From: Candidatus Eremiobacterota bacterium
GTDB lineage: Bacteria > Vulcanimicrobiota > Vulcanimicrobiia > Vulcanimicrobiales > Vulcanimicrobiaceae
Assembly (NCBI GenBank): GCA_019235885.1
Contig: JAFAKB010000042.1
Span: forward strand, 1 to 56,587
Direction: 5' to 3'
Length of the DNA stretch: 56,587 nt
Shown here: positions 15,612 through 18,288 of the stretch, piece by piece
Numbering within the stretch: the first letter of the stretch is position 1
Layout of the letters: every line of letters starts with the position of its first letter
Made by a program: the position numbers and the translations under genes
The notes under the pieces: model-generated
Seen by the model: only the letters and a program-made list of their open reading frames with translations
Database searches by the model: none
What the model was told of the DNA's origin: nothing

Positions 15612-16247
15612 CTAGGCGTGGGCCTTCAGCAGCCCGGGGTACTTCTCGCGCAGCGTCTTCAGCTTCGGCAGGTCGTTGTAAACGACGTACGGATAGTCGG
15701 GGTTCCTCGCGACGAAGTGCTGGTGGTACGCTTCGGCCGGATAGAACGCGCGCAGCGGGACGAGCTTGGTGACGATCGGCGCGTTGAACGCGTGCGCCGC
15801 GGTCAGCTCGCGGATCTCCGCTTCGGCGACGCGCTTCTGCTCCGGGCCGGCGTAGAAGATCGCCGAGCGGTACTGCGTCCCGTGGTCGGGGCCTTGGTAG
15901 TCGAGCTCCGTCGGGTCGTGCGCGACGGTGAAGTACACCTGCAGCAGCTGCTTGTACGAGACGACGGCCGGGTCGTAGGTGATCTCGACCGACTCGGCGT
16001 GCCCGGTCGTGCCCGTACTGACCATGTCGTAGTGCGCGGTGGCGCTCGCGCCGCCGGAGAAGCCGGAGACGACGTTCGTGACGCCGCGCAGCTCGTCGAA
16101 GACGGCCTCCATCCCCCAGAAGCAGCCGCCGGCGAGGACGGCCTTCTCGGTGCGGGGCGCGGCCGCGGCGGGAACGCCGGCCAGGGCGCTCAGGAGCCCC
16201 GCGAGCGCGAGCGCGGCGGCGGTGCGGAGTGCGGTCAGGTGCGTCAC
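15612..16247 (-). CDS. msrA: Peptide methionine sulfoxide reductase A, exported
   Basis: It reduces the S-epimer of methionine sulfoxide in damaged proteins. The catalytic motif GGCFWGMEAVFDELRGV is intact, with the reactive Cys, followed by the substrate-pocket segments GHAESVEITYDP and DPTELDYQGPDHGTQYRSAIF. A hydrophobic leader (THLTALRTAAALALAGLLSAL ... AAAA, quoted in part) indicates export, so this copy serves the envelope or periplasm. I use the GTG at 16247 because it puts the leader at the very N-terminus; an ATG 13 codons upstream is the alternative. No msrB is adjacent. A recycling Cys near the C-terminus is not obvious. Confidence 0.95.
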   Translation of the reverse strand: MTHLTALRTAAALALAGLLSALAGVPAAAAPRTEKAVLAGGCFWGMEAVFDELRGVTNVVSGFSGGASATAHYDMVSTGTTGHAESVEITYDPAVVSYKQLLQVYFTVAHDPTELDYQGPDHGTQYRSAIFYAGPEQKRVAEAEIRELTAAHAFNAPIVTKLVPLRAFYPAEAYHQHFVARNPDYPYVVYNDLPKLKTLREKYPGLLKAHA

Positions 16248-16307
16248 GATCCCATCGTAGCACCGCGGGGTTCGCGCGTGCTGCAAGCGCGCTTACAGGG
16301 CGGGCGG

Positions 16308-16337
16308 TTGACGGGAGCCGTCCGGCCGTGGTAAGAC
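16308..16337 (+). promoter_or_regulatory. Possible promoter of the aromatic leader/pheA-aroF transcript
   Basis: TTGACG and TAAGAC are separated by 18 nt, placing the transcription start close to the leader-peptide ATG at 16346. The -35 is good, the -10 weak (3 of 6). If it is used, the leader peptide would be translated almost leaderless, which fits the lack of a Shine-Dalgarno before it. Confidence 0.35.
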
Positions 16338-16345
16338 CGTCGCAC

Positions 16346-16411
16346 ATGACCCGTGCGACCTGGTCCTACCGGTATTTCTCCTACGCCTCGCGGAGCGCGC
16401 CGGCGCGGTAG
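16346..16411 (+). CDS. Aromatic-rich attenuation leader peptide
   Basis: This 21-codon reading frame contains the run TWSYRYFSY, in which five of eight successive codons from 16361 encode Trp, Tyr, Tyr, Phe and Tyr. That density matches classical leader peptides of aromatic biosynthesis operons, whose translation rate reports charged tRNA levels. Its TAG stop (16409-16411) lies inside a predicted RNA stem, 37 nt before an intrinsic terminator and 86 nt before the DAHP synthase fusion gene. No Shine-Dalgarno is visible. The peptide itself is presumably not functional. Confidence 0.75.
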
Positions 16412-16478
16412 GCCTTTGCCGTAACGAGTCCGAGCGGACCGAAACTGCAAGAGCCCCTCGCCGAGCGAGGGGCTCTTT
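16365..16478 (+). promoter_or_regulatory. Transcription attenuator with mutually exclusive stems
   Basis: Four segments can be laid out by eye. Segment 1 (16365-16371, CCTACCG) lies within the aromatic codons and pairs perfectly with segment 2 (16406-16412, CGGTAGG). Segment 2 extended (16411-16419, GGCCTTTGC) can instead pair with segment 3 (16447-16455, GCAAGAGCC) with one mismatch and one G-U pair. Segments 3 and 4 (16449-16460 and 16466-16477) form a perfect 12-bp stem with loop CCGAG, then TTTATCTT, an intrinsic terminator. Stalling at the aromatic codons would mask segment 1, free segment 2 to hold segment 3, and allow read-through. The 3:4 terminator is certain; the alternative pairing is inferred. 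Confidence 0.72.
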
Positions 16479-16497
16479 ATCTTCTCGGGAGTGCATC

Positions 16498-18288
16498 ATG
16501 ATCAGCGTCCAGCCCGCGAACGGCGAGCAGCCCCCCATCCTGACCCTGACCGCGGCCTTCGAAGGGATCGAAGGCTCGTACTCGCACGCCGTGCTGAACG
16601 CGTACGCCGAGCGGCGCAGCGTCGTGTTCGCGCCGATGGGCTGCTCCTCGTACCGCAGCGTCGCGCACGCCGTCCTCTCGGGCCGTGCCGACCTCGGCCT
16701 GCTGCCGGTCGACAACGCGATCGCCGGCACGATTCGCGAAGGCTACGACGTCCTTGCCGAGTACGAGCTCGATCTTCTGGCGGAGATCACCTGGCGCATG
16801 GAGCACAAGCTGCTCGGCGTCCCGGGCGCGACGCTCGACGGCTTGCGCGTGATCGACTCGCATCCGGTCGTGCTCGCCGAGTGCGGGCGCTTCCTCGGGA
16901 CGCTCCCCGACGTGCGGCGCGTCCCTGTTCCCGACACCGGCGTCGCCGCGCGCGACGTCGCGGCGGCGCAGGATCTCACCCGCGGCGCGATCGCTTCGTC
17001 CGAAGCGGCACGGCGCTACGGCTTGATCGAGCTCGCCGACACGATCGCCGACCACCCCGACAACTTCACCCGCTTCGTGCTCTTCCGCGCGCGCAACGCG
17101 CGCGGTCCGGCGGCGGACTTCGAGCCGGCGGAAGACTTCGCCAACCGCAAGACCTCGCTCGTGTTCTCGGTCGCCGACGCGCCGGGGGCGCTCGGGCACT
17201 GTCTTTCGATCCTCGGCGCGAACGGGCTGAACGTGTCGAAGCTGGACTCGAAGACGCGGCTCGGAACGAGCGGTCAGTCCTCGTTCTACGCCGATGTCGA
17301 CGGCGACGTGCGCGAAGAGCGCTTCGCCGGCGCGCTGCGCGCGCTGCGCGAGGTGACCGTCGCGTTGCACGTGATCGGGAGCTACGACGCTGCGAGCGCG
17401 CCGCCGCGCGAGCGGCGCGCGCCGGCGATCGTGATCGACGAGACGCCCCCGGTCGTGCCGAAGCCGGGCGCGGTGAAGCATCCGAAGGCGCAGCGCCAAG
17501 ACGAGAACGTGCGCTCGCGGGTGATGGTCGGCGACGTCGCGGTCGGCGACGGCCACTTCGTGGTGATCGGCGGACCGTGCAGCGTCGAGTCGCGCGACCA
17601 GATTCTCGCCACGGCGCAAGCGGTTGCGGCGGCCGGCGGCGCGATGCTGCGCGGCGGCGCGTTCAAGCCGCGCACCTCGCCGTACGCGTTTCAAGGGCTG
17701 CGCTGGGAAGGCGTCTCGCTGCTCGCGGAAGCCAGCCGCGCAACGGGCTTGCCGACCGTCAGCGAGGTGATGAGCATCGAGCAGGTCGAGCGGATGGCGG
17801 CCTCGGTCGACGTGCTGCAGATCGGGGCGCGCAACATGCAGAACTTCGACCTGCTCAAAGCCGTCGGCAAGACGGATCGCCCGATCTTGCTCAAGCGCGG
17901 GATGTCGGCGACGATCGACGAGCTGCTCTCGTCGGCGGAGTACATTCTGAGCGAAGGCAATCCCAACGTCATCTTGTGCGAGCGCGGGATTCGCACGTTC
18001 GAGACCTCGACGCGCAACACGCTCGACCTCTCGGCGGTCCCGGTGCTGCGCGAGCGGACGCATCTCCCGGTGATCGTCGACCCTTCGCACGGCGTCGGCG
18101 TGCGGCGCTGGATCCGCCCGCTGTGCCGTGCCGCGAAGGCCGTCGGCGCGCACGGCCTGCTCCTGGAAGTCCACCCGAACCCGGCCGAAGCGATGTGCGA
18201 CGCCGACCAGGCGCTCACGTTCCGAGACTTCGCCAGCATCATGGCGGAGCTGGCGAGCCTGCCGTCGTTCGCGGAGATCCACGCCTAG
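16498..18288 (+). CDS. Prephenate dehydratase-ACT domain fused to DAHP synthase
   Basis: One 596-residue protein joins the first enzyme of the shikimate pathway to a late phenylalanine step. Residues ~15-200 are a prephenate dehydratase ([20 protein letters not shown], and the catalytic NFTRF). Residues ~218-300 are an ACT domain ([18 protein letters not shown] ... LDSKTR). After a linker, residues ~350-590 are a type I-beta DAHP synthase ([44 protein letters not shown]). Phenylalanine binding to the ACT domain could therefore restrain both ends of the pathway. DAHP synthases of this type usually carry a ferredoxin-like or chorismate mutase domain instead. The attenuator upstream adds transcriptional control. 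Confidence 0.95.

What the first reader, a model, noticed from the sequence alone, without database searches (positions are those of the whole stretch)
16346..16478. Ribosome-mediated attenuator with Trp/Tyr/Phe leader peptide ahead of a DAHP synthase fusion gene
A 21-codon leader with five aromatic codons in eight is followed by a perfect 12-bp terminator. Between them lie complementary segments that could form either a pause/protector stem (7 bp, overlapping the aromatic codons and the leader stop) or an anti-terminator. Reading three different aromatic amino acids at one site suits a gene acting at the common entry point of the pathway. Classical attenuators of this kind are best known from Proteobacteria and Actinobacteria; finding one in what seems to be a deep, poorly studied phylum is notable. 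The leader, stems and spacing are seen directly; the switching is inferred.
Basis: partly seen in the sequence, partly recalled or inferred. Interest (0 to 1): 0.85.

Follow-up and report, generated by a model that had tools for sequence, protein, structure and literature searches.

The report
Aromatic amino-acid attenuator in Eremiobacterota
A tiny peptide gene packed with tyrosine, phenylalanine and tryptophan codons, followed by an RNA stop signal, almost certainly lets this little-studied bacterium switch on aromatic amino-acid synthesis only when those amino acids run short, and the same switch, with other codons swapped in, sits before many other amino-acid genes of its relatives.

Summary
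In detail: a 21-codon leader (16346-16411, W-S-Y-R-Y-F-S-Y) and a perfect 13-bp terminator (16449-16477) precede a prephenate dehydratase-ACT-DAHP synthase fusion gene; 40 simulated windows contain no such ORF. The reading is supported and extended. Of 19 family genomes (this one included), 18 keep the leader, a roughly 17-bp antiterminator that takes up the terminator's 5' arm, and a protector helix made by the aromatic codons; one genus lacks the element. Cognate segments pair better than segments swapped between genera. Ribosome geometry fits. Two points were missed. The leader is probably leaderless: TTGAC lies 36-42 nt upstream in 76 of 86 elements and Shine-Dalgarno-like motifs are nearly absent. 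It also belongs to an order-wide set with codon-matched leaders before aroA, DAHPS, tyrA, trpD, ilvB/C/A/E, leuA, hom, ask, metY, ssuA, sulfite reductase and a Tyr-only unknown protein; four are in this genome. The mechanism is a known kind (trp type; Corynebacterium aroR; leaderless leaders in Actinobacteria). The phylum, target and breadth appear unreported in the library searched. No RNA data exist.

The parts
16308..16313 (+). -35 element TTGACG
   Evidence: TTGAC lies 36-42 nt upstream of the leader start in 76 of 86 attenuators, chance about 0.6% per locus; the strict sigma-70 scan did not report it because the -10 is weak
16329..16337 (+). extended -10 (TGG-TAAGAC), 18-nt spacer, 8 nt before the leader ATG, so transcription probably starts at or next to the ATG
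   Evidence: alignment of promoters of 18 genomes; inferred, no TSS data
16346..16411 (+). leader peptide [24 protein letters not shown], probably leaderless (no Shine-Dalgarno)
   Evidence: aromatic codons 95/252 in frame against 22 and 23 in the other frames across 18 leaders
16361..16384 (+). sensor codons 6-13 (TGG TCC TAC CGG TAT TTC TCC TAC)
   Evidence: geometry
16365..16371 (+). segment 1 of the protector helix (CCTACCG), lying inside the aromatic codons
16401..16422 (+). segment 2 (CGGCGCGGTAGGCCTTTGCCGT): pairs either with segment 1 or with segment 3; contains the leader stop
16425..16441 (+). small apical hairpin between segments 2 and 3 (GTCC/GGAC core)
16444..16463 (+). segment 3: 3' strand of the antiterminator, overlapping the terminator 5' arm and loop
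16449..16477 (+). intrinsic terminator hairpin, 13 bp, loop CGA, followed by TATCTTCTCG
16487..16491 (+). Shine-Dalgarno-like GGGAG of the structural gene
   Evidence: sequence
16498..18288 (+). structural gene: prephenate dehydratase (PF00800) - ACT - DAHP synthase type I (PF00793) fusion, 596 aa; the only DAHP synthase found in this genome

Best explanation
This is a ribosome-mediated transcription attenuator. RNA polymerase starts at or next to the leader ATG, and a ribosome most likely begins on the leaderless 5' end and follows it. If charged Trp-, Tyr- or Phe-tRNA is short, the ribosome stalls within codons 6-13. It then covers segment 1 (16365-16371) and leaves segment 2 (16401-16422) free. 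Segment 2 pairs with segment 3 (16444-16463), which takes up the 5' arm and loop of the terminator, so the polymerase reads on into the prephenate dehydratase-DAHP synthase gene. If all three are plentiful, the ribosome runs to the stop at 16409, covers segment 2 but not segment 3, the terminator (16449-16477) forms and transcription ends. With no ribosome, segments 1 and 2 pair and the terminator also forms. The input works as an OR gate: lack of any one aromatic amino acid turns on the first step of the shared pathway plus the Phe branch. Shown by computation: the parts, their conservation, cognate pairing and geometry. Inferred: transcription start, translation of the leader, termination and response.
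For: Leader and terminator verified and not expected by chance. 18 of 19 family genomes read (this one included) keep an aromatic leader plus terminator before the same fusion gene. Covariance model R1, built from those 18, found further fusion-gene copies such as L038, L044, L049, L055, L069 and L225. Antiterminator in the same register in all 18: mean -22.1 against -19.9 kcal/mol for pairs swapped between genera, permutation fraction 0.002 with one member per genus; mean z -2.5 against shuffled segment 2. Double changes that keep pairing, e.g. L012 GGUACGCGC/GCGCGAACC and L009 CUGUGUAG/CUAACAG. Protector: cognate -20.0 against -16.1, 0 of 20,000 permutations. Geometry: with the last aromatic codon in the A site the ribosome edge lies short of segment 2 in 14 of 18 leaders; in the other four (L006, L008, L016, L018) only a stray later aromatic codon breaks this. 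At the stop the edge lies at nt 69-96, before segment 3 (nt 89-99), in all. Aromatic codons 95 of 252 in frame against 22 and 23 out of frame. Structural gene makes DAHP and phenylpyruvate. Elements of the same architecture carry leader codons that match the product of the next gene.
Against: No transcript, TSS, ribosome-profiling or reporter data. The U-tract is interrupted (TATCTTCTCG) and weak in some relatives (L002, L003), so termination strength is uncertain. In genus g18 (L017, L103) the fusion gene lacks the element. The protector region alone folds no better than shuffles in this copy (z +0.57). Column-wise pair counts on the MAFFT alignment are modest because of indels.
Confidence: 0.9

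Rival explanations
1. Translational attenuation: the same alternating helices control ribosome access to the structural gene rather than termination. Stalling would free the GGGAG at 16487-16491; otherwise the hairpin hinders initiation.
For: The U-tract after the hairpin is interrupted here and poor in L002/L003; the SD lies only about 10 nt downstream of the hairpin.
Against: The hairpin does not include the SD. Most elements of the set have T-rich tails. The structure (GC hairpin plus T-rich tail, z -5.4) is the classical terminator form.
Confidence: 0.07
2. A plain promoter-proximal terminator plus a chance ORF, with no regulation by translation.
For: Constitutive terminators are common; no expression data.
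Against: The neighbouring msrA-like gene is divergent, so there is no upstream transcript to insulate. Conservation, codon matching, three-way pairing and geometry across genera.
Confidence: 0.02
3. A riboswitch, T-box or protein-binding attenuator, the ORF being incidental.
For: Regulated terminators before amino-acid genes are often of these kinds.
Against: No Rfam family reaches its gathering score in the window; the best sub-threshold match over this exact stretch is Leu_leader, itself a peptide attenuator. Leader codons follow the product of the next gene across the classes.
Confidence: 0.01

Closest known systems
aroR-aroF attenuator of Corynebacterium glutamicum (Neshat et al. 2014, as described in PMC11802643; also PMC4046766)
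   Same: Aromatic leader peptide (Phe-Tyr-Phe) before a DAHP synthase gene; read-through on Phe limitation; an attenuator at the entry of the shikimate pathway.
   Different: Another phylum; a PDT-DAHPS fusion instead of aroF; a Trp codon as well; no sequence homology was tested. In C. glutamicum Tyr supply had no effect, whereas here Tyr is the constant codon.
trp, pheA, his, leu and thr attenuators of enterobacteria (Rfam Trp_leader, Phe_leader, Leu_leader RF00512, Thr_leader RF00506)
   Same: Order of parts: leader ORF, protector, antiterminator, terminator. Leu_leader aligns end to end over 16345-16478 at 26.6 bits.
   Different: Score is below the gathering cut-off of 50, so not a member of that RNA family; enterobacterial leaders have Shine-Dalgarno sites (own knowledge), this one does not.
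Leaderless leader peptides of Actinobacteria (Streptomyces lividans trpL1, leuL, ilvL, metL in PMC8079986; comparative predictions in PMC1262725)
   Same: Leader peptide apparently translated from the 5' end of the RNA; several amino-acid specificities in one genome.
   Different: There the elements differ from one another and several lack clear terminators; here one layout with a terminator recurs across all specificities.

Membership tests
Ribosome-mediated transcription attenuator (trp-type) | Short leader ORF with clustered codons for the end product | tested here: met
   18 of 19 family genomes, this one included
Ribosome-mediated transcription attenuator (trp-type) | Intrinsic terminator between leader and structural gene | tested here: met
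   13 bp, z -5.4
Ribosome-mediated transcription attenuator (trp-type) | Mutually exclusive antiterminator that uses the terminator 5' arm | tested here: met
   cognate better than swapped, permutation fraction 0.002
Ribosome-mediated transcription attenuator (trp-type) | Protector helix broken by a stalled ribosome; stop codon placed so that a finishing ribosome hides segment 2 | tested here: met
   the main codon cluster fits in 18 leaders, with stray later aromatic codons in four of them
Ribosome-mediated transcription attenuator (trp-type) | Structural gene in the pathway of the sensed amino acid | tested here: met
   PDT and DAHP synthase domains
Ribosome-mediated transcription attenuator (trp-type) | Amino-acid-dependent termination that needs leader translation | not testable with these tools
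   No expression data; bench test proposed
Leaderless leader peptide | Transcription start at or within a few nt of the leader start codon, no Shine-Dalgarno | tested here: inconclusive
   Promoter spacing strongly implies it (76 of 86 with TTGAC 36-42 nt upstream; SD-like motif in 5 of 86) but no 5' end was mapped
Rfam RF00512 Leu_leader | Score at or above the curated gathering score | tested here: not met
   26.6 against 50 bits
T-box or known riboswitch | Rfam match at gathering score | tested here: not met
   0 matches in the window
Corynebacterium aroR attenuator | Homology of leader RNA or peptide | not tested
   No aroR sequence was compared; only functional resemblance is claimed

The most novel reading that the evidence does not exclude
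One leaderless attenuator scaffold has spread by duplication and re-coding through the genomes of an order of Eremiobacterota: the same promoter spacing, segment 2/3 core and terminator are reused, and only the leader codons are swapped. It senses aromatic, Tyr-only, Trp, branched-chain, Ile, Thr/Met, Cys and Cys/Met supply and is a main amino-acid regulator of these bacteria, reaching genes of unexplained link to tyrosine (a haem-oxygenase-like protein) and to cysteine (a peroxiredoxin).
Probability: 0.4. Interest if true: 0.75.

Novelty: new member of a known kind. Interest (0 to 1): 0.6.

Why it matters
Ribosome-mediated attenuation is best documented in Proteobacteria and Actinobacteria. 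In the searched library I found no report of it in Eremiobacterota. A codon-matched set of at least ten targets in one order gives regulon predictions for a phylum with very few cultured members (Vulcanimicrobium alpinum was the first, PMC9758169). It links an uncharacterised protein to tyrosine and a peroxiredoxin to cysteine, and offers a natural series for asking how attenuators evolve new specificities and whether leaderless initiation is fast enough to couple ribosome and polymerase.

Tried and rejected
Rfam at gathering and at relaxed thresholds: no membership, only sub-threshold Leu_leader and Thr_leader. Column-wise pair counts on the MAFFT alignment gave modest support because indels shift the register; replaced by cognate-against-swapped duplex tests. 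An upstream GTG at 16328 as leader start was rejected because it lies in the -10 region. The fusion genes of other phyla (L104-L109) carry no aromatic leader immediately upstream; in L105-L107 and L109 the upstream sequence reads as a chorismate-mutase-like stretch (recognised by eye, not by a profile).

Full report
WHAT WAS CHECKED. The stretch 16346-16478 reads as described. The leader is [21 protein letters not shown], with W, Y, Y, F, Y in codons 6-13. The hairpin at 16449-16477 is 13 perfect pairs with a three-base loop and a T-rich but interrupted tail; it folds at -25.3 kcal/mol, z -5.4. The window has one ORF of 8-40 codons with at least five aromatic residues in eight; 40 simulated windows have none. 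The structural gene (16498-18288) is a prephenate dehydratase-ACT-DAHP synthase I fusion. This genome has one type I DAHP synthase, this one, and no type II enzyme, so the element controls the only detected entry to the shikimate pathway (the assembly is 95% complete).

WHOSE GENOME. The window is contig 42 of a 4.5-Mb assembly. Contigs of its relatives have the same lengths as public contigs titled Candidatus Eremiobacterota (G009:C90 and PMOG01000187.1, 17,810 bases; G002:C13 and PMOS01000011.1, 134,165 bases; G022:C4 and DAIDGS010000004.1, 39,530 bases). NCBI files the phylum as Vulcanimicrobiota.

RELATIVES OF THE FUSION GENE. Upstream regions of the gene were read in 19 genomes of the family, this one included (L010 was cut by a contig end). 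Eighteen have an aromatic-rich leader, a GC-rich hairpin and the same promoter spacing. The exception is genus g18 (L017; also L103), whose genes have no TTGAC in the 400 nt upstream and no such leader. A covariance model of the 18 (R1) found more copies before fusion genes in the family.

ALTERNATIVE PAIRINGS. Segment 2 and segment 3 form a long imperfect helix in the same register in all 18 sequences. It consumes the 5' arm and loop of the terminator. Pairs from the same genome are stronger than pairs swapped between genera (one member per genus: permutation fraction 0.002). Where the core UUUGC/GCAAG has changed, the partner has changed too: L012 has GGUACGCGC with GCGCGAACC, and L009 CUGUGUAG with CUAACAG. 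Segment 1, inside the aromatic codons, pairs with segment 2 in a way that is again specific to each genome (-20.0 against -16.1 kcal/mol; 0 of 20,000 permutations). In L012 all three segments have shifted together. In this copy the antiterminator stretch folds at -30.9 kcal/mol (z -3.6) and the terminator at -25.3 (z -5.4); the protector region alone is not more stable than shuffles (z +0.57). Simple column counts were weaker because of indels.

GEOMETRY. With an assumed edge of about 14 nt ahead of the A-site codon, a ribosome stalled on the last aromatic codon ends short of segment 2 in 14 of 18 leaders (edge nt 39-57, segment 2 starting at nt 49-61). Four leaders (L006, L008, L016, L018) have one stray aromatic codon further on, although their main cluster fits. 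A ribosome at the stop ends at nt 69-96, and segment 3 starts at nt 89-99, so it hides segment 2 but not segment 3 in every leader. Across 18 leaders Tyr codons total 53, Phe 28 and Trp 17; Tyr is the only one present in every leader, and L018 and L019 have no Phe. The input is therefore best described as Tyr-centred with Phe and Trp added, working as an OR gate (inference).

LEADERLESS START. TTGAC lies 36-42 nt (mode 38) before the leader start codon in 76 of 86 catalogued elements, against a chance of about 0.6% per locus, and an SD-like four-mer is found in only 5 of 86. In the window, TTGACG (16308-16313), an 18-nt spacer and TGG-TAAGAC (16329-16337) leave 8 nt before the ATG, so the transcript should begin at or next to it. 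The structural gene, by contrast, has GGGAG at 16487-16491. No 5' end has been mapped, so this is an inference. Caveat: for the non-fusion elements the presence of TTGAC was one of the sorting criteria when several start codons were possible, so the 76 of 86 is somewhat favoured; the 18 fusion-gene leaders were chosen without it and all have it.

A SET OF RE-CODED ELEMENTS. Lower R1 hits, and a second model from non-aromatic leaders (R2), lead to elements with the same layout and codon-matched leaders (gene families). Aromatic: EPSP synthase (own genome, MSARAYSYRYYGCT), stand-alone DAHP synthase, prephenate dehydrogenase. Trp: trpD (MYLVHWCVHWCS). Branched chain: ilvB, ilvC, leuA-like, class IV aminotransferase. 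Ile: a PALP-ACT enzyme of the threonine deaminase type (MFASSSIIIASRIII). Thr/Met: homoserine dehydrogenase (own genome, MFGLCVTTTTTMTTTS) and an aspartokinase-like protein. Cys/Met: metY (own genome, MDACCMAMMAMC) and sulfonate-binding SsuA. Cys: a sulfite/nitrite reductase-type protein (MLLCCCLLMAC), TauE and a peroxiredoxin. Tyr only: a 256-aa protein with a weak Haem_oxygenas_2 match. Own genome: four elements. R2 at E <= 1e-5 hits 45 of 147 genomes of the phylum, all in the same order. R1 also finds an aromatic leader before DAHP synthase in a different family of the class (L209). Antiterminator-type pairing is stronger than in shuffles across 68 elements (mean z -2.05). That models built from one class find the other classes over their full length suggests common descent, but convergence on one workable layout is not excluded.

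COMPARISON. The parts and logic are those of trp-type attenuators. The nearest functional parallel is aroR-aroF of C. glutamicum (PMC11802643, PMC4046766). Leaderless leader peptides are known from Streptomyces lividans (PMC8079986), and comparative prediction of attenuators from Actinobacteria (PMC1262725). Rfam Leu_leader aligns over the whole element below threshold. I found no paper on leader peptides or ribosomal attenuation in this phylum, within a library that lacks most subscription journals.

VERDICT. A real, conserved ribosome-mediated attenuator; a new member of a known kind in a new phylum, and part of a set whose breadth is the more interesting result.

Noticed in passing
L061:878-1645 (-) and L054, L056, L059, L070, L072, L087, L217, L228: Tyr-only leaders (e.g. 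MFVLHSDAYYYYYYGYFDRS) precede a conserved ~256-aa protein with no Pfam, NCBIfam or PDB match at the usual cut-offs; only a weak iron-containing redox enzyme (Haem_oxygenas_2) hit. Role in tyrosine metabolism unknown.
   Followed up: partly
L219 (G005:C19:22128-22251): A Cys-rich leader (MFETGRSAMCCCLC) with terminator stands before a peroxiredoxin (AhpC/TSA) gene: cysteine supply may control a peroxide-defence gene.
   Followed up: partly
L230 (G000:C85:48498-48640) and L204: Homoserine dehydrogenase leaders with six to eight Thr codons (MFGLCVTTTTTMTTTSLG) in this genome and a congener.
   Followed up: partly
L092 (G000:C47:1946-2079) and L263: Cys/Met leader (MDACCMAMMAMC) before an O-acetylhomoserine sulfhydrylase (metY) gene, in this genome and a congener.
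   Followed up: partly
L105, L106, L107, L109 upstream of the fusion gene match: In other phyla the PDT-DAHPS fusion has a chorismate-mutase-like sequence directly upstream; the Eremiobacterota version lacks it.
   Followed up: no
L017 (G027) and L103: Genus g18 keeps the fusion gene without leader, TTGAC promoter or terminator: a natural loss (or absence) of the attenuator.
   Followed up: partly
window 15612-16286 (-): A divergent peptide-methionine sulfoxide reductase (msrA)-like gene shares the intergenic region with the attenuator promoter.
   Followed up: no
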